DNA of 64,000 nt from Ralstonia pickettii (GTDB lineage: Bacteria; Pseudomonadota; Gammaproteobacteria; Burkholderiales; Burkholderiaceae), in NCBI RefSeq assembly GCF_001699815.1, contig NZ_MCGB01000025.1, forward strand, positions 248,001 through 312,000. The letters are read 5' to 3'. Below are positions 221 through 13,664 of the stretch, piece after piece. The notes beneath the pieces were generated by a model. That model saw only the letters and a list, made by a program, of their open reading frames with translations, did not search any database and was not told the DNA's origin. Within the stretch, counting starts at the first letter, position 1. Each line of letters begins with the position of its first letter. The position numbers and the translations under genes were made by a program.

Positions 221-291
221 GGCTCCGAGATTGTAAACTTCCGGCTTGTCGGCCAGTGAGCTGGACAAATCACACCCACGGGGAACCCCCT

Positions 292-1542
292 TTGAAACTT
301 CCATACGAATGGCAGATCGGCTGGCGGTATACGCGCGCAAGCAAGCGCGCCAGCCGCAATAGCTTCATCTCTTTCATTTCGCTCATCTCCATGCTCGGCA
401 TTGCGCTGGGGGTGGCGGCGCTGATCATCGTGCTTTCGGTCATGAACGGCTTCCAGAAGGAAGTGCGAGACCGCATGCTGTCGGTGCTGGCGCATATCGA
501 AGTGATGGCGCCGAACAGCCTGCCGGACTGGCAGCGTACCGCCAATGAGGCGATGCAGAACAAGGAAGTCATCGGCGCGGCGCCCTACGTGGGCGCACAG
601 GCCATGATCACGCGCGACGAGGCGGTGCGCGGCGTGCTGCTGCGCGGCGTGTCGCCGGCGGACGAGCCGAAGGTGTCGGACATTGCCAAGGATTTCAAAT
701 CGGGCTCGATCGACGATCTGAAACCCGGCGAATTCGGCATCGCCCTGGGCAGCCAGCTGGCCAACGGCCTGGGCGTGCATCAGGGAGACAAGGTCACGCT
801 GGTGGCGCCGCAGGGCACCATCACGCCGGCGGGCGTGTTGCCGCGCCTGAAGCAGTTCACGGTGACGGGCATCTTCGAGTCGGGCCACTACGAGTTCGAC
901 AGCTCCCTCGCACTCGTCAACATGGAAGACGCCGAACGACTGTTCCGCCTCGATGGCCCGACCGGCGTGCGTCTGAAGCTGGTCGACATGGACCGCGCCC
1001 CGCAGGTGGCCGAAGCGCTGTCGCGCACGTTGTCCGGCGAGCTGTACATCCGCGACTGGTCGCGCCAGAACCGCAACTGGTTTGCCGCCGTGAAGACCGA
1101 GAAGAAGATGATGTTCATCATCCTCACGCTGATCATCGCCGTGGCCGCGTTCAACCTGGTGTCAACGCTGGTGATGACGGTGACGGACAAGCAGGCCGAC
1201 ATCGCCATCCTGCGCACCATGGGCGCACAACCCGCGTCGATCATGAAGATCTTCATCGTGCAGGGCGTTGCGATCGGGTTCATCGGCACATTGCTGGGGG
1301 TCGGCTTCGGCACGCTCATCGCTTACAACATCGACGTGATCGTCCCTTTCATCGAGCGTCTTTTCCACGTGCAATTCCTGCCGCGTGACATCTATTTCAT
1401 CAGCGAACTGCCCTCGGACCCCCGCGTGAACGACATTGCAACCATTGGCGTCATTTCCTTCATCCTCGCGTCGGTGGCGACGCTGTATCCAAGCTGGCAC
1501 GCTTCGCGCGTGAATCCGGCGGAGGCACTGCGCTATGAGTGA
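292..1542 (+). CDS. lolC: LolC/LolE-family lipoprotein-releasing ABC transporter permease
   Basis: Inner-membrane permease of the LolCDE complex, which extracts outer-membrane lipoproteins from the inner membrane and hands them to LolA. The 416-residue product has the FtsX/MacB layout: a first membrane helix at about residues 26-52, a large periplasmic domain, then three helices in the C-terminal third. I chose the TTG at 292 because the product then begins [14 protein letters not shown], the usual start of the family. An in-frame ATG at 256 would add 12 unlikely residues. The stop overlaps the lolD start by 8 bp, so the two are translationally coupled. Only one permease gene is visible, so it may serve as both LolC and LolE. 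Confidence 0.93.
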
Positions 1543-2263
1543 GGCCGTCATGACTTCGATGGAAGCGCCTGCCGCGGCGCCGCAGGGTGGGGTGGTGCAA
1601 GCCGAAGGGCTGTCCAAGTCGTTCCGCCAGGGCGGGTTGAACGTCGACGTGCTCAAGGGCGTGGATATCCGCATCGGCGTGGGCGAGAAGGTCGCCATCG
1701 TCGGCGCCTCCGGTTCGGGCAAGAGCACGCTGCTGCATGTGCTGGGCGGGCTGGATGAGCCGACGTCGGGCCGCGTCTCTCTGCTCGGCAAGCCCTTCAC
1801 CGCCATGAAAGAGCGCGAGCGCAACACGTTGCGCAACCAGGCGCTGGGCTTTGTCTATCAGTTCCACCATCTGCTGCCCGAATTCACCGCGCTGGACAAC
1901 GTCGCGATGCCACTGCGTATCCGGGGCGTGGAAGAAGCGCAAGCGCGCCACACCGCACAGGCGATGCTCGAACGCGTGGGTCTGGGCCCGCGCACGGCAC
2001 ACCGTCCGGGTGAGCTGTCCGGCGGCGAGCGTCAGCGCGTGGCGATTGCGCGCGCGCTGGTCGGGTCTCCGGCTTGCGTGCTGGCTGACGAGCCTACCGG
2101 CAACCTTGACGATCACACCGCTGGTGAAGTGTTTGACCTGATGCTGGAACTCACGCGCACGCTGGGCACGAGCTTTGTCATCGTCACGCACGATATCGAA
2201 CTGGCCGGCCGCTGCGACCGCATCTTCCGCCTGCGGGACGGCCATCTGCACCAGGAGCGCTAA
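1535..2263 (+). CDS. lolD: Lipoprotein-releasing system ATP-binding protein LolD
   Basis: Cytoplasmic ATPase that powers lipoprotein release by LolCDE. The 242-residue product has Walker [10 protein letters not shown] at residues 57-65, the ABC signature [15 protein letters not shown] and Walker [13 protein letters not shown] followed by the H-loop histidine (VTHD). Length is usual, with about 20 extra Ala/Pro-rich residues at the N terminus. A second ATG 15 bp downstream (1550) is a possible alternative start. It overlaps lolC by 8 bp. Confidence 0.96.
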
Positions 2264-2347
2264 GCCGGCCGGCATGATCGGAAAAGGCGGATTCCACAAG
2301 ACCGCGCTTTCCGGTAGGTTGCCGCTTTCCCCAATGCTGAACCGACC

Positions 2348-3160
2348 ATGTGGATCGATACCCATTGCCACCTCGATGCCAGCGACTTTGATGCCGACCG
2401 TGATGCGGTCGTCGCGCAGGCGCATGCAGCGGGTGTCAACCACATCGTCGTGCCGGCGGTGGCACGCTGGAATTTCGACGCGGTGCGGGCGCTGGCACAT
2501 CGGCATGCCGGTTGCAGTTATGCGCTGGGCATCCATCCGATCTACGCCGCGCAGGCCAGTGAAGAGGACCTCCTCGAGCTGCGCCGCCAAGTCGCCGCGT
2601 CAATGGACGACCCGCGCTTTGTGGCGGTCGGCGAGATCGGCCTCGATTTCTTCATTCCCAACTACGACATTGAACGGCAGAACGCCGTGTTCCGTGCGCA
2701 ACTGCGCATCGCTCGCGAATTCGACCTGCCTGTGCTGATGCACGTGCGCAAGTCGCAAGATCAGGTACAGAGCGCCGCGGCCAAGGCGGGTGTACGCGGC
2801 ATTGCGCATGCGTTCAACGGCAGCCCGGAACAGGCGCATCGCTTTGTCGATTCCGGTTTCAAGCTGGGGTTTGGCGGCGTCTTTACCTTTTCGCGCGCCA
2901 ATCGCGTGCGTCGGCTGGCGCAGGAATTGCCGATCGAGTCGATCGTGCTGGAAACCGACGCGCCTGACCTCGCGCCAGCCTGGCTGGCCGATGATCAATT
3001 CGGGGAGCAGGGCGGTGTGCGCAATGTACCCACGGAAGTCGCGCGCATTGCCGATGCGATGGCGCAACTGCGCGGCATCTCCATTGAGGCGCTGGCCTAC
3101 CAGGCGCGCCGCAACAGCATCGACGCCATTCCCCGCCTGGAAGCGCTCCTGCAAGCCTGA
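2348..3160 (+). CDS. TatD-family metal-dependent hydrolase
   Basis: TIM-barrel metallohydrolase of the TatD DNase family (3'-5' exonuclease or related activity). The 270-residue product has the N-terminal metal site DTHCHLD, the glutamate motif VGEIGLDF, the histidine of LMHVRKS and the late aspartate in LETDAPDLAP. Length is normal. It lies 85 bp after lolD and 9 bp before comEC in the same direction, so it could be co-transcribed with both. Family assignment is firm; which TatD/YcfH/YjjV paralogue it is cannot be told. Confidence 0.92.
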   Translation: MWIDTHCHLDASDFDADRDAVVAQAHAAGVNHIVVPAVARWNFDAVRALAHRHAGCSYALGIHPIYAAQASEEDLLELRRQVAASMDDPRFVAVGEIGLDFFIPNYDIERQNAVFRAQLRIAREFDLPVLMHVRKSQDQVQSAAAKAGVRGIAHAFNGSPEQAHRFVDSGFKLGFGGVFTFSRANRVRRLAQELPIESIVLETDAPDLAPAWLADDQFGEQGGVRNVPTEVARIADAMAQLRGISIEALAYQARRNSIDAIPRLEALLQA

Positions 3161-3169
3161 CGCCCGCAC

Positions 3170-5692
3170 ATGCGTCTCGGGTTGATCGGCTTTGTTGCCG
3201 GCTGCGTGGCATTGCAGATGCAGGCGACGCTGCTGCCGGTGTGGCTGCCGCTTGGCGTGCTGGTGCTCTGTCTGTCGCTGGCCGGTGCCACGCGGCGTCG
3301 GCTGATGCTGTTTCCTGTGTTGCTCGTCGCCAGCACCATCGCGGCGGGCTTTGGCTGGAGCGATTGGCGTGCGCAGCAGCGCATGGCGGTGGCACTCAGC
3401 CCCGCGTGCGAAGGCAAGGACATCATAGCGACCGGCGTGGTGGCTGAGTTGCCGCAGACCGGTGATGACGCCACGCGCTTTCTCTTTCACATCGAATCCA
3501 GCAATGCGGGTGATACCGTGCCGCCCCGCGTGCGCCTGTCCTGGTATGGCCCACGCACGTGGGGCAACGTGGGCGAGGAAGATGCGAAGCCGGACCGACG
3601 CGCTGGCATCCCCGATCTGCAGCCCGGCCAACGCTGGCAACTGACGCTGCGCCTAAAGCGCCCGCACAGCCTGACCAACCCCGGCGGCTTCGATGGCGAA
3701 TACGCGATGCTGGCCGACAACATCCGGGCCGTCGGCTATGTGCGTACAGGCAAGCGCGCGCAGAACATCGCGCTTGGCGAGGCGAGCGCCGGTTTCGGAA
3801 TTGGCGTGGAGCGCTGGCGTGCCAGCGTGCGGCGCCACATCCTCGATGCCCTGCCCGATGGGCGCTACGCGGCTGTCATTGTCGCCCTGGTGGTGGGCGA
3901 CCAGAGCGGCATCGCTCCCGACGACTGGGACCTGTTCCGCCGCACCGGCATCAGCCACCTCGTCAGCATTTCGGGGCTGCACATCACGATGATCGCCGGG
4001 CTGTTTGCAGCGTTGTGGATGGCGCTGTGGCGTCGCTCGTTCTGGCTGGCGCGCTGGCTGCGTACGCCGTTGCCGCTGCGCATGCCGGCCCCGCGCGCAG
4101 GCGCCATCGCGGCCATGCTGGCTGCGTTCGCCTACTGCCTGCTCGTCGGGATGGGCGTGCCGGCGCAGCGCACGCTGCTGATGCTCTCCACCGTAGCCAT
4201 CGCCCGGCTGACCGATCGGAATGTGCCCGCCAGCCTGTCGCTGTGCTGGGCGGCGGCCGTGGTGGCGGTGGTGGACCCGTGGGCCGTCATGTCGGCGGGG
4301 TTCTGGCTGTCGTTCGGCGCGGTGGCGATCATCTTCATCGCCGCGCAGATGGCGCTCGATGGCCATCGCAGTGACAACCCAGATGGCTGGGTCGAACGCA
4401 CGCGCCGTGCGCTCGCTGGCGGTACGCGGATTCAGTTCGCGGTCACATTCGGGCTATTGCCTTTGACTTTGCTGCTGTTCCAGCAGACGTCGGTCGTCTC
4501 TGCTGCGGCGAATGGGCTGGCGATTCCCGCGGTGAGTTTCATGACGACACCGCTGGCGCTGATCGGCGCGGCTCTCCCGGACCCGCTAGCGCAGCCAGTG
4601 CTGATGTTGGCCGAAGCGAGCTTCCGGTGGCTGGTCGTATGGCTTGAATGGCTGGCGAAGCCGCGCTGGTCTGTGTGGGTTGCGCCGGTTGGACCCATGT
4701 GGGCAGTGTTGCTGTCGATGGTTGCGGTGGCGCTATTGCTGGTGCCGGGTGGCTTGCGCGCATGGGTGTGGCGCGCTCAGGGTGCCTTGCTCCTCTTGCC
4801 GTTGGTACTGGCGCGCGAGCCATTGCCATCGCCTGGCGAATTCCGGCTCGTCGCGTTCGACATCGGCCAGGGCGCTGCGGCCTTGGTTGAAACGGCCAAC
4901 CATCGCCTGCTGTTCGACACCGGCCCGCGCTACGGCGACCATGCCGATGCCGCCGCCCGCGTCATCGCTCCCTATCTGCGAGCACATGGCGTGGAAGCGC
5001 TCGACACGCTTGCCGTCAGCCACGAAGACAACGACCACGCCGGTGGCACCGAAACGGTGATCGGCGCGGTGCCGGTGCGCACCATGTTGGCGTCTTTGCC
5101 TCCGGGGCACGCCCTGCGCGGCACGGCCGATGCCAACAACATCGGTTTTGCCGATTGTTTGGCTGGGCAAGCATGGACGTGGGACGGCGTTGTCTTTGAG
5201 GTGCTGCACCCGCGGCGTTTGCCGGCTGAAAGCGAGCGCGTGTCCAGCAACGCCCGCAGTTGTGTGCTGCGTATCGCCAATGGCCGCCACGCCGCCTTGC
5301 TGACCGGCGATATCGAAGCCGCCCAGGAAAGCGCGCTGATCGACGCAGAAACGCCTGAGCGACTGATGGCAGACATCTTGCTTGTGCCTCATCACGGCAG
5401 CAAGACAAGCTCCAGCGGCGCGTTCCTGAACGCGGTTTCTCCGCAAGTGGCGGTTTTCCAGGTCGGCTACCGCAATCGGTACGGACATCCGCATCCGCAG
5501 ATTTGGCAGCGCTACGTAGCGCGCGACATCGACGGGTTGCGCACGGACAAGACCGGTGCCGTCGTCATTCAGACCGACGGCGATGTGCTGGACATCCAGA
5601 CCGCGCGCAAAATGCGGCCGCGGTACTGGTCTTCCGCACAGGAAGTGGAACCCCTGGCAACGGCCACCGGCGCCTTCGACGCCCAGCCGTGA
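3170..5692 (+). CDS. comEC: DNA internalisation protein ComEC/Rec2
   Basis: Inner-membrane channel that carries single-stranded DNA into the cytoplasm during natural transformation. The 840-residue product has an N-terminal membrane and DUF4131 region (about 1-200), a central multi-helix Competence domain (about 220-510, including the conserved GISHLVSISGLHITMIAGL-type segment) and a C-terminal metallo-beta-lactamase domain with SHEDNDHAGG (about 610). Full length and intact. The gene starts 9 bp after tatD. Natural competence is known in Ralstonia, so the gene is probably functional. Confidence 0.95.
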   Translation: MRLGLIGFVAGCVALQMQATLLPVWLPLGVLVLCLSLAGATRRRLMLFPVLLVASTIAAGFGWSDWRAQQRMAVALSPACEGKDIIATGVVAELPQTGDDATRFLFHIESSNAGDTVPPRVRLSWYGPRTWGNVGEEDAKPDRRAGIPDLQPGQRWQLTLRLKRPHSLTNPGGFDGEYAMLADNIRAVGYVRTGKRAQNIALGEASAGFGIGVERWRASVRRHILDALPDGRYAAVIVALVVGDQSGIAPDDWDLFRRTGISHLVSISGLHITMIAGLFAALWMALWRRSFWLARWLRTPLPLRMPAPRAGAIAAMLAAFAYCLLVGMGVPAQRTLLMLSTVAIARLTDRNVPASLSLCWAAAVVAVVDPWAVMSAGFWLSFGAVAIIFIAAQMALDGHRSDNPDGWVERTRRALAGGTRIQFAVTFGLLPLTLLLFQQTSVVSAAANGLAIPAVSFMTTPLALIGAALPDPLAQPVLMLAEASFRWLVVWLEWLAKPRWSVWVAPVGPMWAVLLSMVAVALLLVPGGLRAWVWRAQGALLLLPLVLAREPLPSPGEFRLVAFDIGQGAAALVETANHRLLFDTGPRYGDHADAAARVIAPYLRAHGVEALDTLAVSHEDNDHAGGTETVIGAVPVRTMLASLPPGHALRGTADANNIGFADCLAGQAWTWDGVVFEVLHPRRLPAESERVSSNARSCVLRIANGRHAALLTGDIEAAQESALIDAETPERLMADILLVPHHGSKTSSSGAFLNAVSPQVAVFQVGYRNRYGHPHPQIWQRYVARDIDGLRTDKTGAVVIQTDGDVLDIQTARKMRPRYWSSAQEVEPLATATGAFDAQP

Positions 5693-5721
5693 AAACTTGG
5701 TGGCACAACGGGTTGGCCCCA

Positions 5722-5751
5722 TTGTGGCGGTCAAAACCGCTGTGCTATAAA
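5722..5751 (+). promoter_or_regulatory. Probable sigma-70 promoter of the ATP-grasp/Anbu cluster
   Basis: A TTGTGG box at 5722-5727 is followed after 18 bp by TATAAA at 5746-5751. The spacer holds a small inverted repeat (GCGGT, 4-nt gap, ACCGC, 5727-5740) that could be an operator. A strong ribosome site (AGGGGAGGAAAG) precedes the ATG at 5798. No other promoter-like sequence is obvious between comEC and this gene. Confidence 0.5.
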
Positions 5752-5797
5752 AACCGCGTGCCGCGTACATCGCGCGGCGCCGTCAGGGGAGGAAAGC

Positions 5798-7282
5798 ATG
5801 GCAGTCCGGTTCTACGATGAAATGCTCAGCTGGCATGACGGGGACCGCAACCCCCATGCCGCCGAACCGGCCCCGGCAGCGCTCGTCCAGCAGGGCGAGG
5901 TTCGCGGCCACTACGGACGTTTCGCCGAATGGCTGGGCGCGCAATCCGCCTCGACGCTGCAGAACAAGCGCGCCGAGGCAGACCTGATCTTCCGCCGGGT
6001 CGGTATCACCTTTGCTGTGTACGGCGACAAGGACGATTCGAACAGCGGCACTGAACGCACCATCCCGTTCGACATCATTCCGCGCATCTTCCCCGCAAGC
6101 GAATGGGCCACGCTCGAGCGCGGCCTGCGGCAGCGCGTTGATGCGCTGAACCGCTTCCTGCACGACATCTACCACGAGCAGAACATCCTGCGCGCGGGCG
6201 TCATACCGCCCGATCAGATCTACAACAACGCCCAATACCGCCCGGACATGCTGGGCGTCAACGTGCCGCGCGACATCTACGCGCACGTGGCTGGCATCGA
6301 TATCGTGCGGGCCGGCGAGGGCGAGTTCTACGTGCTGGAAGACAACCTGCGCGTGCCCTCGGGTGTGTCGTATATGCTGGAAAACCGCAAGATGATGATG
6401 CGGCTGTTTCCGGAGTTGTTCGCACGCAATCGTGTGGCGCCGGTTGCGCATTACCCCGACATGCTGCTCGACATGCTGCGCAGCGTGTCGCCGCAGAACA
6501 TTGCGGACCCCACCGTGGTGGTGCTCACGCCGGGCATGTACAACTCGGCATATTTCGAGCACGCGTTCCTGGCACAGCAAATGGGCGTCGAGCTGGTGGA
6601 GGGCCACGATCTGTTCGTGCAGGACGACCACCTCTACATGCGCACGACGCAGGGTCCGCAGCGCATCGATGTCATCTACCGCCGTGTGGACGACGACTTC
6701 CTCGACCCGCTGGTGTTCCGCCCGGATTCTTCGCTCGGCGCAGCGGGGCTGCTGTCGGTCTATCGCGCGGGCAACGTGACGATCTGTAATGCCATCGGCA
6801 CCGGCGTGGCAGACGACAAGTCGATCTATCCGTATGTGCCGGACATGATCCGTTTCTACCTGGGCGAGGAGCCGATTCTGAATAACGTGCCGACATACAT
6901 GTGCCGCCGTCCAGATGACCTGCAATACGTCCTGGACCACATGGGCGAACTGGTGGTCAAGGAGACGCACGGGGCAGGCGGCTACGGCATGCTGGTCGGT
7001 CCGGCTGCCACGCAGGAAGAGATTGCCGCTTTCCGTGAGGTGGTGAAGGCGCGCCCTGATCAATACATCGCCCAGCCCACCTTGGCGCTGTCGACTTGCC
7101 CAACCTATGTGGAGGCTGGTATTGCACCGCGCCACATCGATCTGCGGCCTTTTGTGCTGTCCGGCAAGGACGTGCGCATGGTGCCGGGCGGCCTCACGCG
7201 CGTGGCGTTGCGAGCGGGCTCGCTGGTGGTCAACTCGTCTCAGGGCGGGGGAACGAAGGACACGTGGGTGCTGGAGCGCTGA
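5798..7282 (+). CDS. Circularly permuted ATP-grasp protein (DUF404/DUF407 type)
   Basis: The 494-residue protein belongs to the circularly permuted ATP-grasp type 2 family, predicted to form amide or peptide bonds at the cost of ATP. Visible hallmarks are LEDNLRVPSGVSYMLENR in the middle, KETHGAGGYGMLVGP, and a C-terminal GKDVRMVPGGLTRVAL segment ending in SSQGGGTKDTWVLE. It is the first gene of a cluster with an alpha-E protein, a transglutaminase and Anbu, an arrangement known from comparative genomics but with unknown substrate. Soluble and presumably cytoplasmic. Start supported by an excellent ribosome site 6 nt upstream. Confidence 0.92.
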   Translation: MAVRFYDEMLSWHDGDRNPHAAEPAPAALVQQGEVRGHYGRFAEWLGAQSASTLQNKRAEADLIFRRVGITFAVYGDKDDSNSGTERTIPFDIIPRIFPASEWATLERGLRQRVDALNRFLHDIYHEQNILRAGVIPPDQIYNNAQYRPDMLGVNVPRDIYAHVAGIDIVRAGEGEFYVLEDNLRVPSGVSYMLENRKMMMRLFPELFARNRVAPVAHYPDMLLDMLRSVSPQNIADPTVVVLTPGMYNSAYFEHAFLAQQMGVELVEGHDLFVQDDHLYMRTTQGPQRIDVIYRRVDDDFLDPLVFRPDSSLGAAGLLSVYRAGNVTICNAIGTGVADDKSIYPYVPDMIRFYLGEEPILNNVPTYMCRRPDDLQYVLDHMGELVVKETHGAGGYGMLVGPAATQEEIAAFREVVKARPDQYIAQPTLALSTCPTYVEAGIAPRHIDLRPFVLSGKDVRMVPGGLTRVALRAGSLVVNSSQGGGTKDTWVLER

Positions 7283-7356
7283 ACGCACGCGCAGCGACGC
7301 AACCTGGCAATCGATTGATCGATCCACCGCATATCGGATACGTAGAAGGGAACGCC

Positions 7357-8307
7357 ATGCTCAGCCGCACCGCAGACCACCTTTTCTGGATGGCGCGCTA
7401 CACCGAACGCGCCGAGAACACCGCCCGCATGCTCGACGTGAACTACCAGACCTCGCTGATGCCGCAATCGGCGGAAGTGGCGGAGCAGGGCTGGTGGGCG
7501 ATGCTCGATATATCCGAACTCACGCAGGTTTTTGCCGACCGCTATGGCTTGCTTTCGCGCGACGACGTGATTGACTTCATGGTGCGCGACATGACCAACC
7601 CGTCGTCGATCATGAGCTGCCTGCGCGGCGCGCGTGAGAACGCCCGCGCCGTGCGCGGCTCCCTCACAACGGAAGTGTGGGAAACCATCAACACCACGTG
7701 GCTCGACGTGCAGCGCCTGATTGCCGAAGGCATGCTGCGCGAGGATCCGTCGCAGTTCTTTGAGTGGGTGAAGTTCCGCTCGCATCTGTCGCGCGGCGTG
7801 CAGGTCGGCACCATGCTGACGGACGACGCGTTCCACTTCATGCGGCTGGGCACGTTTCTGGAACGCGCCGACAACACTGCGCGGCTGCTGGACGTGAAGT
7901 TCCAGTCCACGCCCACACGCGATGAAGCCGCCGCAGAGCAGGGCGACTTCTACCACTGGGCCGCCACGCTGCGCTCCGTGTCGGGTTTCGAGGTTTATCG
8001 CAAGATCTATCGCAACGTCATCACGCCGACGCGCGTGGCGGAACTGCTGATCCTGCGCAGCGACATGCCGCGTTCGCTGCTGGCCAGCATGGACGAGGTG
8101 GTTGCGATTCTTTCGACCGTGCGCAACAGTCAATCGGCGGAGACGGAGCGTCGCGCTGGTAAACTGCACGCCGACCTGCGGTACGCCCGCATCGAAGATA
8201 TCTTTTCGGTCGGCCTGCATGCCTGGCTGACCAACTTCCTGGAGCGGATCGGCGACCTGGGCAACGGCATCAGCCAGGATTTCCTGGTGCCGCTCGAGGT
8301 CGCATGA
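7357..8307 (+). CDS. Alpha-E domain protein (DUF403)
   Basis: The 316-residue, largely alpha-helical protein begins MLSRTADHLFWMARYTERAEN, the typical opening of the alpha-E family; a longer upstream frame from 7096 lies inside the ATP-grasp gene and is not used. The family is almost always encoded beside a circularly permuted ATP-grasp enzyme and is thought to be its partner. A distinctive segment WETINTTWLDVQ lies near residue 110, and a second ERADNTARLLDVK repeat echoes the N terminus, hinting at an internal duplication. It lies 75 bp after the ATP-grasp gene. Confidence 0.92.
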   Translation: MLSRTADHLFWMARYTERAENTARMLDVNYQTSLMPQSAEVAEQGWWAMLDISELTQVFADRYGLLSRDDVIDFMVRDMTNPSSIMSCLRGARENARAVRGSLTTEVWETINTTWLDVQRLIAEGMLREDPSQFFEWVKFRSHLSRGVQVGTMLTDDAFHFMRLGTFLERADNTARLLDVKFQSTPTRDEAAAEQGDFYHWAATLRSVSGFEVYRKIYRNVITPTRVAELLILRSDMPRSLLASMDEVVAILSTVRNSQSAETERRAGKLHADLRYARIEDIFSVGLHAWLTNFLERIGDLGNGISQDFLVPLEVA

Positions 8308-8333
8308 CCCTGCAGGGCATTGTGCATACATCG

Positions 8334-8357
8334 GGGCGCCGCTTTCGGGCGGCGCCC
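8334..8357 (+). promoter_or_regulatory. Strong hairpin covering the transglutaminase translation start region
   Basis: GGGCGCCGC at 8334-8342 pairs perfectly with GCGGCGCCC at 8349-8357 across a 6-nt loop. The hairpin ends 8 nt before the GTG start at 8366, where a ribosome site should lie. No T run follows, so it is not a classical terminator. It may be an RNA-processing or stability element, or may throttle translation of the downstream gene. Confidence 0.5.
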
Positions 8358-8365
8358 GTGTCATC

Positions 8366-9211
8366 GTGAAATACCAAATTCGACATACGACGGTCTACCG
8401 TTATGCCGAGCCGCTGCGCCACAGCGTGCATGAGCTGCGGCTGACGCCTCGCAGCGGCGAGCTGCAGCAGGTGGAGAGCTGGCAGATCCACGCGCCTGGC
8501 AACCTCACGCGCGCCACCGACGGTTTCGGCAACATCGTCCACCACTTCACTCTCGGCAACCGTACGGAAGACGTCATCATCGACGCGCGCGGCATTGTCG
8601 AAGCGTTTCCTGCGGGCTCGCCTGGCAGCCAACGGTTTGTCGAAGCACGCGAGCAGGGGCGCTATCGCGTTTCGCCGCTGTATTTTCTGAGCGCCACGCC
8701 GCTGACTTCCGCGCCCGCCGAGATGATCGACTTTGCGCGCGAGCATGCACTGGTGCACGGCGACGCAGAATCTGCCGTGCGCCTGGCGCAAGCCATTGCC
8801 ACGCGTGTGCGCTACAAGCCGAACACCACTCACGTCGGCACGGCCGCTGCGGAGGCGTTTGGCCTGGGCACGGGCGTATGCCAGGACCAGGCGCAGGTGA
8901 TGGTCGCGTGCTGCCGGGCACTGGGCGTGCCGGCGCGCTATGTCAGCGGCTATTTCCAAGCCGTGGGCGAGGAAGACCTTGCCAGTCATGCCTGGGCCGA
9001 CGTCTGCCTCGATGCCGAATCCCACACGTGGTGCAGCATCGACGTCACCCACCAATGCTTTACCGATGCGCGCCATATCCGGTTGGCGGTCGGGCGTGAT
9101 TACCAGTCGGCTGCGCCGGTTCGCGGCGTGCGGCAGGGCGGGGGTGCTGAGACGCTGGATGTCAGCATCTCCATCGAGCCGCTGCCCGCCGAGGCTGCGC
9201 AAGTGAATTGA
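8366..9211 (+). CDS. Transglutaminase-like cysteine protease family protein
   Basis: The 281-residue product has the two-part structure of bacterial transglutaminase-like proteins: an N-terminal beta region (KYQIRHTTVYRYAEPL, about 1-95) and a papain-like core with a plausible triad Cys172 (GVCQDQAQ), His208 (ASHAWADV) and Asp226 (CSIDVTHQ). The GTG start at 8366 gives the conserved family N terminus. No signal peptide is visible. In the Anbu cluster it is presumed to cleave or exchange amide bonds opposite to the ATP-grasp ligase; this is inference. It has no clear Shine-Dalgarno and is preceded by a strong hairpin. Confidence 0.9.
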   Translation: MKYQIRHTTVYRYAEPLRHSVHELRLTPRSGELQQVESWQIHAPGNLTRATDGFGNIVHHFTLGNRTEDVIIDARGIVEAFPAGSPGSQRFVEAREQGRYRVSPLYFLSATPLTSAPAEMIDFAREHALVHGDAESAVRLAQAIATRVRYKPNTTHVGTAAAEAFGLGTGVCQDQAQVMVACCRALGVPARYVSGYFQAVGEEDLASHAWADVCLDAESHTWCSIDVTHQCFTDARHIRLAVGRDYQSAAPVRGVRQGGGAETLDVSISIEPLPAEAAQVN

Positions 9212-9252
9212 GCATCTCTTCCAAGCGCGCGGATGGGTTCTGATCGCCGCGC

Positions 9253-9258
9253 TAGAAT
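9253..9258 (+). promoter_or_regulatory. Candidate -10 box of the Anbu gene
   Basis: TAGAAT at 9253-9258 lies about 35 bp before the Anbu ATG, in the 82-bp gap after the transglutaminase gene. The same hexamer precedes several other genes in this window (accA, yejA, the tRNA). No good -35 is evident. It suggests Anbu can be transcribed apart from the upstream genes. Confidence 0.4.
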
Positions 9259-9293
9259 GCCCTCAACCACCGTTTCCGTTTGTTGTTTCGCCC

Positions 9294-10196
9294 ATGACTT
9301 ATTGCGTCGCCATGCGCCTGGACGCAGGCCTTGTGTTCCTGTCTGACTCCCGTACCAACGCGGGCGTGGATGCTATTTCCACGTTCCGCAAGATGACCGT
9401 CTTCGAGCGCGAAGGCGATCGCGTCATGGTGCTGCTGACGGCCGGCAATCTCGCCATCAGCCAGGCGGTGCGCCAGGTGCTGACCGAAGCGCGCGGCAAG
9501 CCGCGCTCGCTGTGGACGGCGCGTGACATGTTCGAGGCGGCCACGATCGTGGGCGAGGCCGTACGAGACGTCTACGACCGCGACGCCGCGGCATTGGCCA
9601 AGGCCAAGATCGACTTCAATGTCAGCATCATCTTTGGCGGGCAGATCGGCGCAGAGCGGCCGCGCCTGTTCAACGTCTACGCGGCGGGAAACTTCATTGA
9701 AGCGACGCCCGAGAACTGCTATTTCCAGATTGGCGAAGCCAAGTACGGCAAGCCGATCATCGATCGCGTGGTCAGCCCCGGGCTGCCGCTGGATGAAGCC
9801 GCAAAATGCGCGCTCATCTCGATGGATTCGACGCTGAAGTCCAATATTTCGGTGGGCTTGCCGCTGGATCTGCTGGTCTACGAGGCCGACTCGCTGCATG
9901 TGACGCGCTTTGTCGCCATTGATGAAGAGAACCCATATTTCACGATGATTCGCGGCACATGGGGTAAGCGGCTGCGCCAGGTGTTTGCCGAAATCGACGA
10001 TCCGGATTGGGAAACCGGCACTTCGCCGTCGTATCCGCTGCGCCGCGAGGGACATCCCTCCGCAGAGGTTGAGCCCGTACGCATTGCGCCGCCTGCCGCC
10101 GACGCGCCAGCGGCGCCGGACCGTGCGCCCGGCCCCGCGTTGGAACAGGTTTCGACCATCCAGCGCGTGGCTGGCGGATCGCAGAAGTCGCACTGA
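9294..10196 (+). CDS. Anbu-type proteasome-like peptidase (bacterial proteasome homologue)
   Basis: The 300-residue protein begins MTYCVAMRLDAGLVFLSDSR, the signature of Anbu, an Ntn-hydrolase of the proteasome beta fold. Removing Met1 leaves Thr as the N-terminal nucleophile. Asp18 and Lys33 (17 and 32 in mature numbering) sit where the proteasome has Asp17 and Lys33, so the active site looks intact. The ATG at 9294 is therefore fixed by chemistry. About 60 C-terminal residues form a Pro/Ala-rich extension (SYPLRREGHPSAEVEP onward) beyond the usual core. The leader is pyrimidine-rich and lacks a Shine-Dalgarno. The physiological substrate of Anbu is unknown. Confidence 0.92.
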   Translation: MTYCVAMRLDAGLVFLSDSRTNAGVDAISTFRKMTVFEREGDRVMVLLTAGNLAISQAVRQVLTEARGKPRSLWTARDMFEAATIVGEAVRDVYDRDAAALAKAKIDFNVSIIFGGQIGAERPRLFNVYAAGNFIEATPENCYFQIGEAKYGKPIIDRVVSPGLPLDEAAKCALISMDSTLKSNISVGLPLDLLVYEADSLHVTRFVAIDEENPYFTMIRGTWGKRLRQVFAEIDDPDWETGTSPSYPLRREGHPSAEVEPVRIAPPAADAPAAPDRAPGPALEQVSTIQRVAGGSQKSH

Positions 10197-10213
10197 ACGG
10201 CACAGGATCTGCG

Positions 10214-11035
10214 ATGCGCGATGTGATGCTCTTTTCGCATGCCAACGGCTTTCCCGTCGGGACGTATCGCAAGATGCTGGGCGTGCTGGGTGACGAATTC
10301 GACATCCGCGCGGTGGAGCGCTTTGGGCACGATCCACGTTTCCCCGTCACACGTTCGTGGCCTGGCCTGGTGAAAGAGCTGCTTGCGGAAATCGACGCGC
10401 AGCCCGAGCCGGTCTGGCTGGTAGGGCACTCGCTGGGCGGTTTTTTGAGCTTGATGGCGGCACTTCGTCGGCCCGAGCGCGTGCGCGGCGTCGTGATGCT
10501 TGATTCACCGATCATTGCGGGGTGGCGCGCCAAGCTGCTGCGCGTTGCGCAGTGGCTGGACATTGATGAGAGCCAATCACCTGCCGCAGCAACGAAGAAC
10601 CGGCGCCACCTGTGGCCTGATCTCGACTCCGTCTGGAGCCACTTCAAGGCCAAGCGCAAGTTCGACCGTTGGGACGAAGACGTGCTGCGCGACTATGTCG
10701 AGCATGGTACAGAGCCCACCGGCCGTGACCATGAGCGCACACTGCGTTTCTCTCGCGAAATCGAATACCAGATCTACCGGACCTTGCCGACCAACATGGG
10801 GCGAAAGGTTGCGGGCGGCACGGCGTTTCCGGTCAGTTTCGTGGCAGGCACCCGCTCGCGCGAGATTCGGCAGGTCGGACTGGGCGCCACCCGGCGCATC
10901 GTCGGCAGCAGGCTGCGCTGGATCGAGGGCAGCCACCTCTATCCGATGGAAAAGCCGCTGGAAACGGCCGGGTTGATCCGCGAGTTGATCCACGAAATGC
11001 GCGCCAACGCAGGCTCCATGCCGCACGCCGCATAG
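10214..11035 (+). CDS. Alpha/beta hydrolase
   Basis: The 273-residue protein has the alpha/beta hydrolase fold with oxyanion-region SHANGFPVGTY at residues 8-18, nucleophile elbow GHSLGG (Ser73), an acidic residue in LDSPI or later and a C-terminal histidine in EGSHLYPMEKP. No signal peptide. It begins 17 bp after Anbu in the same direction, so it is probably co-transcribed with it. The substrate cannot be read from sequence. Confidence 0.88.
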   Translation: MRDVMLFSHANGFPVGTYRKMLGVLGDEFDIRAVERFGHDPRFPVTRSWPGLVKELLAEIDAQPEPVWLVGHSLGGFLSLMAALRRPERVRGVVMLDSPIIAGWRAKLLRVAQWLDIDESQSPAAATKNRRHLWPDLDSVWSHFKAKRKFDRWDEDVLRDYVEHGTEPTGRDHERTLRFSREIEYQIYRTLPTNMGRKVAGGTAFPVSFVAGTRSREIRQVGLGATRRIVGSRLRWIEGSHLYPMEKPLETAGLIRELIHEMRANAGSMPHAA

Positions 11036-11095
11036 GCAAGACCGCGCTGGGGCAAATTCCACCGTTCTGTCACGGATCGGAGAGGGGACCTTTGC

Positions 11096-11101
11096 TATAA
11101 T
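11096..11101 (+). promoter_or_regulatory. -10 box of pyrG
   Basis: A consensus TATAAT at 11096-11101 lies 25 bp before the pyrG ATG, giving a predicted leader of about 20 nt. No convincing -35 hexamer is seen at the proper spacing. Confidence 0.6.
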
Positions 11102-11123
11102 CCGGCTTTCCCCGGCAAGCTAG

Positions 11124-12788
<1,665 letters not shown>

Positions 12789-12809
12789 GCGCCGGCACAC
12801 GGGAACATC

Positions 12810-13664
12810 ATGAAACTCTGCGATTTCGAAGTCGGCCTCGACAAACCGTTCTTCCTGATTGCCGGCACCTGCGTGATCGAATCCGAGCAGATGGCGATCG
12901 ACACCGCCGGTACGCTCAAGGAGATCACGGGTGCGTTGGGCATTCCGTTCATCTACAAGTCGTCGTTCGACAAGGCGAACCGCTCGTCGGACGCTTCGTT
13001 CCGCGGTCTGGGCATGGAAGAGGGGCTGCGCATTCTGTCGGAGGTCCGTCGCCAGGTGGGCGTGCCGGTGCTGACCGACATCCACGAGATCGACGAGATC
13101 AAGCCGGTGGCCGAAGTCGTGGACGTGCTCCAGACGCCGGCGTTCCTGTGCCGCCAGACCGATTTCATCCGCGCCTGCGCGCAGAGCGGCAAGCCCGTCA
13201 ACATCAAGAAGGGCCAGTTCCTCGCACCGCACGACATGAAGAATGTCATCGACAAGGCGCGTCACGCTGCCCGCGATGCCGGTCTGCCGGAAGACAACTT
13301 CATGGCCTGCGAGCGCGGCGCCTCGTTCGGTTACAACAACCTGGTGTCGGACATGCGCTCGCTGGCGATCATGCGCGAGACGGGGGCGCCGGTGGTGTTC
13401 GACGCCACGCATTCGGTGCAATTGCCGGGCGGCCAGGGCACCAGTTCGGGCGGCCAGCGGGAGTTCGTGCCGGTGCTGGCTCGTGCCGCGATCGCTGTGG
13501 GGGTTGCAGGTGTCTTCATGGAAACGCACCCCGATCCCGCATGCGCAAAATCAGATGGCCCGAATGCTGTGCCGCTGCGGCGCATGAAAGACTTGCTGTC
13601 AGTACTGAAAGAACTGGATGCGCTCACCAAGCGCAGCGGTTTCCTGGAAAATCAGTTCGACTGA
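12810..13664 (+). CDS. kdsA: 3-deoxy-8-phosphooctulonate synthase (KDO8P synthase)
   Basis: Condenses phosphoenolpyruvate with arabinose 5-phosphate to KDO 8-phosphate for the LPS inner core. The 284-residue product has the family segments [21 protein letters not shown] and the C-terminal [10 protein letters not shown] stretch. Full length; cytoplasmic. It is 21 bp downstream of pyrG, so probably in the same transcript. Confidence 0.97.

What the first reader, a model, noticed from the sequence alone, without database searches (positions are those of the whole stretch)
5798..11035. Collinear ATP-grasp / alpha-E / transglutaminase / Anbu peptidase cluster with an added alpha/beta hydrolase
Five genes in one direction encode a circularly permuted ATP-grasp enzyme, an alpha-E protein, a transglutaminase-like protease with an intact Cys172/His208/Asp226, the proteasome-like peptidase Anbu with Thr1/Asp17/Lys32 (mature numbering), and an alpha/beta hydrolase. 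The first four are a known genomic association of unresolved function. My inference is a peptide-tag or secondary-peptide system in which the ligase makes an amide, the transglutaminase removes or exchanges it and Anbu destroys the tagged product. This is the strongest candidate here for an undescribed biological system.
Basis: partly seen in the sequence, partly recalled or inferred. Interest (0 to 1): 0.75.

Follow-up and report, generated by a model that had tools for sequence, protein, structure and literature searches.

The report
Known Anbu cassette beside unrelated hydrolase
Four of the five genes are a known but still unexplained bacterial gene set, elsewhere switched on by nitrogen starvation and here apparently lacking that switch, while the fifth gene is most likely just a long-standing neighbour.

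Summary
Five co-directional genes encode a circularly permuted ATP-grasp, alpha-E, a transglutaminase-like protein, Anbu and an alpha/beta hydrolase, catalytic residues intact. The first four are the published Anbu operon. The hydrolase is most likely not a member: in 160 family genomes it is beside Anbu in 29, present but apart in 46, alone in 35, and Anbu is alone in 30 (p=0.37). In 11 of 11 fetched loci of related genera it stands between comEC and pyrG without the cassette. One result cuts the other way: in a second family Anbu, far from alpha-E, lies within 1.6 kb of the hydrolase in 32 of 80 genera. There the hydrolase keeps its place when Anbu is elsewhere, so I read an inherited site; a real Anbu-hydrolase pair stays open. 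Upstream of the ligase gene a sigma-54-type site (nitrogen-starvation type) occurs in 28 of 45 loci outside this genus (1.35 expected), but in 2 of 16 genomes of this genus, both inside comEC; these 16 share an extended -10-like TATAAA instead. Best mechanism: an ATP-grasp/alpha-E amide ligase with amide-opening partners for nitrogen economy. The chemistry is untested.

The parts
5693..5797 (+). Intergenic region comEC to ATP-grasp: nearly invariant TTGGCCCCATTGTGG (5713-5727) and extended -10-like TGC-TATAAA (5743-5751); no conserved sigma-54 -24/-12 site
   Evidence: Alignment of 16 genomes of the genus (TATAAA in 16 of 16, TGC in 15 of 16); sigma-54 scans. That it is the promoter is inferred; the tool's sigma-70 scan found no site here
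5798..7282 (+). Circularly permuted ATP-grasp ligase, 494 aa
   Evidence: PF14403/PF04174; PDB 3n6x E=9.3e-217
7357..8307 (+). Alpha-E protein, 316 aa, all-helical, two-fold internal repeat
   Evidence: PF04168; halves align by hhalign, E=2.6e-18; model pLDDT 90.2; ATP-grasp directly upstream in 143 of 145 alpha-E genes
8366..9211 (+). Transglutaminase-like cysteine enzyme, 281 aa, C172/H208/D226
   Evidence: PF08379 and PF01841; triad conservation
9294..10196 (+). Anbu proteasome-like Ntn hydrolase, 300 aa, T1/D17/K32 (mature numbering), with a 60-residue Pro/Ala-rich tail
   Evidence: PDB Anbu entries; tail
10214..11035 (+). Alpha/beta hydrolase (S73, H241): neighbour, first gene of an old hydrolase-pyrG-kdsA block; most likely not part of the cassette
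11127..13664 (+). pyrG (11127-12788) and kdsA (12810-13664): right flank
   Evidence: gene order in relatives
2348..5692 (+). tatD (2348-3160) and comEC (3170-5692): left flank
   Evidence: gene order in relatives

Best explanation
The locus is the known four-gene Anbu cassette (ATP-grasp, alpha-E, transglutaminase-like, Anbu) lying between comEC and an old hydrolase-pyrG-kdsA block; the hydrolase is a positional neighbour. Mechanism, inferred: ATP-grasp and alpha-E act as one ligase that activates a carboxylate as acyl phosphate and joins it to an amine. The transglutaminase-like cysteine enzyme and, where linked, the N-terminal-threonine hydrolase Anbu open amide bonds of the same class of compound. 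Expressed on nitrogen starvation in other bacteria, such a cycle would store, modify or release amide nitrogen. Shown here: gene identity, conserved catalytic residues, the ATP-grasp/alpha-E unit (adjacent, or fused in one protein), separability of hydrolase and Anbu, sigma-54-type sites outside the genus and their lack inside it. Inferred: that this genus expresses the cassette from a housekeeping-type promoter, outside NtrC control. Not known: substrate and product. My separate estimates: hydrolase not a functional member 0.8; ancestral nitrogen-starvation control 0.8; sigma-54 promoter lost in this genus 0.75; amide-nitrogen mechanism 0.35.
For: Identity and residues. Own family, 160 genomes: hydrolase and Anbu adjacent 29, both but apart 46, hydrolase only 35, Anbu only 30, neither 20. 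comEC-hydrolase-pyrG-kdsA without cassette in 11 of 11 fetched loci of related genera. Second family, 20 fetched loci without Anbu at the site: mutS next upstream of the hydrolase in 15 (one with an 896-bp gap), pyrG next downstream in 13. The hydrolase follows closely whatever is upstream: median gap 18 bp after Anbu (47 loci, some fetched twice), 3 bp after mutS (15), 71.5 bp after comEC (12). ATP-grasp directly upstream of alpha-E in 143 of 145, fused in L044. Sigma-54-type site within 300 bp upstream of ATP-grasp: g3 (Cupriavidus-type) 12 of 12, other own-family genera 7 of 12, other families 9 of 17, g13/g22 0 of 3, g5 0 of 1, own genus 2 of 16 (both at -202, inside comEC); loci of named organisms 34 of 73 usable of 80, 2.82 expected. 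Same threshold upstream of other genes outside the genus: alpha-E 1 of 131, transglutaminase 1 of 63, Anbu 4 of 99, hydrolase 0 of 79, comEC 0 of 25, pyrG 5 of 48, kdsA 1 of 42, tatD 0 of 15, mutS 0 of 38. Published: P. putida PP_2685 (Anbu) log2 4.44 and PP_2688 (ATP-grasp) 3.99 on nitrate versus ammonium (PMC8050072); B. cenocepacia ATP-grasp/alpha-E/transglutaminase genes at -6.0 to -9.4 in the table of genes changed in the ntrC mutant (PMC5491218); Y. bercovieri ATP-grasp releases phosphate from ATP (PMC6376114).
Against: No substrate, product or phenotype came up in the searches I made; published Anbu assays with peptide substrates were negative and co-expression showed no specific complex. 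Anbu stands directly before the hydrolase in two families, which fits a functional pair too; the Anbu tree does not resolve whether the shared site is ancestral. Lack of a sigma-54 match is not lack of nitrogen control: it could be indirect or act from further upstream. 17 of 45 loci outside the genus also lack a match at my threshold, and with gene starts taken by a cruder rule only 38 of 124 loci outside the genus match. One stand-alone Anbu of 9 has a site of its own (L107). NtrC is present in the genome. At a looser score and a wider stretch, comEC upstream regions matched in 12 of 20; at the stricter one 2 of 14 in the own genus, as often as ATP-grasp there. The score weights are mine.
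Confidence: 0.45

Rival explanations
1. One reading: a five-gene tag or secondary-peptide system in which the ligase makes an amide, the transglutaminase removes or exchanges it, Anbu destroys the product and the hydrolase takes part.
For: Five collinear genes with a 17-bp gap between Anbu and hydrolase, adjacent in 16 of 16 genomes of the genus; catalytic residues conserved.
Against: Hydrolase and Anbu occur independently. 4 of 15 g3 genomes have Anbu without the hydrolase (their gene order in L022-L025). Anbu is unlinked from alpha-E in 32 of 32 Anbu-hydrolase pair genomes of the second family.
Confidence: 0.08
2. Anbu and the hydrolase are a real functional pair, independent of the ligase: one opens an amide, the other an ester or amide of the same substrate.
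For: Anbu next to the hydrolase in two families with different left flanks, 29 of 160 and 32 of 80 genomes; same strand and Anbu first in the 14 second-family pair loci fetched; short gaps.
Against: No co-occurrence beyond chance (p=0.37, 0.16). The two are apart in 46 genomes of one family and more than 12 kb apart in 17 of the other. The hydrolase remains behind mutS or comEC when Anbu is elsewhere. In the order-wide sample 6 of 28 genomes with both have them adjacent: the own genus, g3 and four of the second family; no other family in that sample (counted by hand).
Confidence: 0.17
3. Protein tagging: the ligase adds an amino acid or peptide to proteins and Anbu acts like a deconjugating isopeptidase rather than a destroyer.
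For: Published suggestion reported in PMC6376114 and, as a peptide-synthesis system, in PMC5666114; proteasome-type active-site residues conserved.
Against: No tag protein or AAA+ unfoldase among the genes from 256 to 13664. Genera g12 and g25 lack Anbu while ATP-grasp, alpha-E and transglutaminase matches are present in the three loci fetched from them (L044-L046).
Confidence: 0.25

Closest known systems
Anbu operon (Iyer 2009; Valas and Bourne 2008; neither read by me, cited through PMC6376114 and PMC5666114)
   Same: Same four proteins, same order, same strand; catalytic residues conserved.
   Different: Lies between comEC and hydrolase-pyrG-kdsA; no convincing sigma-54 promoter; Anbu with a 60-residue Pro/Ala-rich tail.
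NtrC/sigma-54 cluster I35_5080-83 of Burkholderia cenocepacia H111 (PMC5491218)
   Same: ATP-grasp (DUF404/407), alpha-E (DUF403) and a transglutaminase-domain protein.
   Different: A large transglutaminase-domain protein as fourth gene instead of Anbu; NtrC-dependent.
P. putida PP_2685 and PP_2688 (PMC8050072)
   Same: Anbu and type 2 ATP-grasp.
   Different: Both induced on nitrate versus ammonium and the PP_2688 promoter responds to nitrogen depletion; the own-genus promoter region lacks the sigma-54 site.
PDB 3n6x, putative glutathionylspermidine synthase
   Same: Nearly full-length sequence match to the ATP-grasp.
   Different: The name is an annotation; that activity was not tested here.

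Membership tests
Anbu operon (four genes) | Circularly permuted ATP-grasp type 2 | tested here: met
   PF14403 E=1.5e-171
Anbu operon (four genes) | Alpha-E protein directly downstream | tested here: met
   PF04168 E=1.8e-97; 7357-8307
Anbu operon (four genes) | Transglutaminase-like protein with Cys-His-Asp | tested here: met
Anbu operon (four genes) | Anbu with T1, D17, K32 after the initiator Met | tested here: met
Anbu operon (four genes) | Conserved order on one strand | tested here: met
NtrC/sigma-54 nitrogen-starvation regulon | -24/-12 promoter upstream of the ATP-grasp gene | tested here: not met
   2 of 16 own-genus genomes over threshold, both inside comEC; the window's own best site (17.0 of 21.4) is below it and not conserved
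NtrC/sigma-54 nitrogen-starvation regulon | Induction by nitrogen limitation in this organism | not testable with these tools
   needs RNA data
Five-gene system including the hydrolase | Hydrolase co-occurs with Anbu beyond chance | tested here: not met
   Fisher p=0.37 (160 genomes) and 0.16 (80 genomes)
Five-gene system including the hydrolase | Hydrolase stays linked to the cassette | tested here: not met
   adjacent to Anbu in 29 of the 75 own-family genomes with both
ATP-dependent self-compartmentalizing protease (HslVU, 20S) | Partner AAA+ unfoldase encoded alongside | tested here: not met
   genes from 256 to 13664 named by Pfam: none is an AAA+ unfoldase; the rest of the genome was not searched for one
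Glutathionylspermidine synthase | Joins glutathione and spermidine | not testable with these tools
   only an annotation of 3n6x
Anti-phage defence system | Match to a PADLOC model | tested here: not met
   0 matches at E<=0.001 for the 5 proteins

The most novel reading that the evidence does not exclude
Anbu is not bound to the ligase at all. In a large part of a second family it stands apart from ATP-grasp/alpha-E, shows no sigma-54 site above chance and pairs with the alpha/beta hydrolase. Anbu's true partner would then be this hydrolase, and the 'Anbu operon' a frequent but optional meeting of two modules: a nitrogen-regulated ligase module and an Anbu-hydrolase module.
Probability: 0.15. 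Interest if true: 0.7.

Novelty: new member of a known kind. Interest (0 to 1): 0.38.

Why it matters
Anbu is a proteasome relative for which the papers seen here report no function or substrate. Showing which neighbours are constant (ATP-grasp with alpha-E) and which are optional (Anbu, hydrolase), and that a sigma-54-type promoter is widespread in the order but missing in this genus, narrows the experiments: test the ligase pair first, under nitrogen starvation, and use genera where Anbu stands apart from the ligase to find its own function.

Tried and rejected

Rows dropped or added before counts: 9 of 119 family genomes with hydrolase matches of 28-41% identity were dropped; 2 of 160 genomes that appear in none of the tables were counted as having neither gene. 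In one search the alpha-E set holds 69 of the 71 genomes that matched, since two showed only fused-type or fragment matches. In one search, 7 of 80 named loci had no usable upstream stretch. In some searches some loci were fetched twice and second copies in one genome are included.
Full report
Identity. The window is part of a 5.24-Mb genome in 113 contigs. Names of G handles are hidden. I infer the genus Ralstonia for the window and Cupriavidus for group g3 (two named Cupriavidus loci, L162 and L195, have g3's gene order and promoter site), and something like Comamonadaceae for family f2; these names are inference or recall. The five genes are as described, with alpha-E starting at 7357. Flanks are tatD and comEC on the left, pyrG and kdsA on the right.

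What is known. PMC6376114 and PMC5666114 (passages read) describe the operon ATP-grasp, alpha-E, transglutaminase, Anbu and its unconfirmed hypotheses; the Yersinia Anbu showed no peptidase or amidase activity on the substrates tried, its ATP-grasp released phosphate from ATP, and co-expression found no specific complex. PMC8050072 (passages with Table 2) gives induction of PP_2685 (proteasome beta subunit) and PP_2688 (circularly permuted ATP-grasp type 2) on nitrate versus ammonium, log2 4.44 and 3.99, and a 3.7-fold response of the PP_2688 promoter on nitrogen depletion, while the PP_2685 promoter fragment did not respond. PMC5491218 (passages) lists I35_5080-83 among NtrC- and sigma-54-dependent genes, values -6.0 to -9.4. 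PMC3597751 (passages) reports that these domains associate with urea metabolism domains in marine metagenomes. PMC12316311 (one passage) finds the proteasome-type protease COG enriched in predicted sigma-54 regulons of alpha-, beta- and gammaproteobacteria. Iyer 2009 is not held. Other papers were seen only as passages and added nothing on function. I saw no mention of this hydrolase with Anbu in the two papers returned by a search for Anbu, hydrolase, Ralstonia and proteasome (listing only) nor in the Anbu passages read.

Is the hydrolase part of it? In 160 genomes of the family the hydrolase matched in 119 (110 after dropping 9 weak ones), Anbu in 105, alpha-E in 128. Adjacent Anbu-hydrolase: 29 genomes, confined to the own genus (16 of 16), g3 (11 of 15), g5 (1 of 1) and g24 (1 of 1, in fragments). 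Both but apart: 46. Hydrolase only: 35, among them 15 of 15 of g12 and 11 of 11 of g25. Anbu only: 30, among them 15 of 15 of g13. Neither: 20, counting two genomes listed nowhere. Fisher p=0.37. In the 11 loci fetched around the hydrolase in genera where the cassette is elsewhere or absent, the order is comEC-hydrolase-pyrG-kdsA (L010-L018, L027, L028; in L018 with about 2.3 kb between comEC and hydrolase). Four g3 loci have the cassette followed by pyrG with no hydrolase (L022-L025).

The result that cuts the other way. In a class-wide sample (185 genomes; Anbu 48, hydrolase 8) the one genome beside the window's own with both had them adjacent. It belongs to family f2. In 80 genomes of f2, one per genus, Anbu matched in 66, hydrolase in 63, alpha-E in 71. 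Of 54 with both, 32 are within 1.6 kb start to start, 5 within 12 kb, 17 apart; none of the 32 has alpha-E within 4.5 kb of Anbu, and of the 11 with Anbu beside alpha-E none has the hydrolase there. Fisher p=0.16. Gene orders seen in the fetched f2 loci: mutS-Anbu-hydrolase-pyrG-kdsA or mutS-Anbu-hydrolase followed by uppP; without Anbu at the site mutS-hydrolase-pyrG-kdsA or -uppP; also mutS-Anbu without hydrolase (MutS and BacA/UppP named by Pfam in L070). So hydrolase-pyrG-kdsA is an old block, and the place just before the hydrolase holds comEC, mutS, Anbu or the whole cassette. I take this as inherited position, but a functional pair is not excluded; the Anbu tree is unresolved at the point that matters.

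Which parts are constant? ATP-grasp lies directly upstream of alpha-E in 143 of 145 alpha-E genes with enough room (exceptions in L119 and L166), and the two are one protein in L044 (887 aa), beside an 1165-aa transglutaminase/DUF2126 protein. What follows alpha-E varies: transglutaminase then Anbu, transglutaminase only, Anbu only, Anbu then transglutaminase, or neither within 3.5 kb. In genera without Anbu the ligase persists: alpha-E in 15 of 15 of g12 and 8 of 11 of g25. Alpha-E itself is a tandem repeat: residues 1-153 and 154-316 align by profile comparison (hhalign E=2.6e-18 over 131 columns with alignment A1, 2.8e-14 over 102 with A3), each half with E-R-A-[ED]-N-T-A-R in the window protein; E17, R18, E20, N21, R24 and E169, R170, D172, R176 are invariant in the 22-row alignment.

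Promoter. I scored -24/-12 sites (GG and GC at the right spacing required) in 300 bp upstream of the ATP-grasp gene. 28 of 45 loci outside the own genus reach 18.7 of 21.4, against 1.35 expected from dinucleotide shuffles: g3 12 of 12, other own-family genera 7 of 12, other families 9 of 17, g13/g22 0 of 3, g5 0 of 1. In the own genus 2 of 16 (0.32 expected), both at -202 within comEC. The loci of named organisms give 34 of 73 usable, 2.82 expected; some may repeat species of the first set. With a cruder rule for gene starts, over all loci outside the genus, ATP-grasp has 38 of 124, against alpha-E 1 of 131, transglutaminase 1 of 63, Anbu 4 of 99, hydrolase 0 of 79, comEC 0 of 25, pyrG 5 of 48, kdsA 1 of 42, tatD 0 of 15, mutS 0 of 38; in the own genus ATP-grasp 2 of 16 and comEC 2 of 14. 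With shuffled controls: Anbu in g3 0 of 11, Anbu in other cassettes 0 of 17, Anbu at the f2 site 1 of 24 (0.57 expected), Anbu standing alone 1 of 9 (0.05 expected), hydrolase 2 of 99 (1.77 expected). An earlier, looser scan (350 bp plus 60 bp of gene, threshold 18) was less clean: ATP-grasp 26 of 45, comEC 12 of 20, hydrolase 11 of 45, pyrG 10 of 49. In the own genus the 105-bp gap instead keeps a nearly invariant TTGGCCCCATTGTGG and TGC-TATAAA. The genome does have an NtrC gene (G000:C4:13028, 631.9 bits, over the curated cut-off). I infer that the cassette left NtrC control in this genus.

Mechanism. ATP-grasp enzymes typically join a carboxylate and an amine through an acyl phosphate (stated in PMC6376114). 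With a transglutaminase-like cysteine enzyme and an N-terminal-threonine hydrolase, both suited to opening amides, and nitrogen-starvation expression elsewhere, the most economical reading is a cycle that makes and opens amides for nitrogen economy. Whether the substrate is a protein, a peptide or a polyamine-like amine cannot be told from sequence. Verdict: a known operon, one gene shorter than claimed, with a promoter change and a clearer division into constant and optional parts.

Noticed in passing
7357-8307: Alpha-E is a tandem duplication of a helical unit of about 150 residues; each half carries E-R-A-[ED]-N-T-A-R. I made no search for whether this is in print.
   Followed up: partly
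10014-10193 (Anbu residues 241-300): Anbu of this genus has a 60-residue Pro/Ala-rich tail beyond the 240-251 residues of the solved Anbu chains; median length 300 in 16 own-genus loci, 273 in 11 g3 loci.
   Followed up: partly
L151-L153, L158, L160: mutS-Anbu-hydrolase-pyrG-kdsA in a second family, with alpha-E elsewhere in the genome.
   Followed up: yes
L044: A second operon type follows the first: ATP-grasp/alpha-E fusion beside a transglutaminase/DUF2126 protein. 5 of 16 own-genus genomes have a second alpha-E match.
   Followed up: partly
L021:1911-5047: In this g3 locus a dehydratase of the IlvD/Edd family and an rpiR-type regulator lie between comEC and the cassette.
   Followed up: partly
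G090 and G099 (genus g8): Only fragments of the hydrolase are left, in G090 with in-frame stops.
   Followed up: no
L020: comEC, ATP-grasp, Anbu and hydrolase matches are split into several pieces in the single g24 genome; decay or sequencing errors.
   Followed up: no
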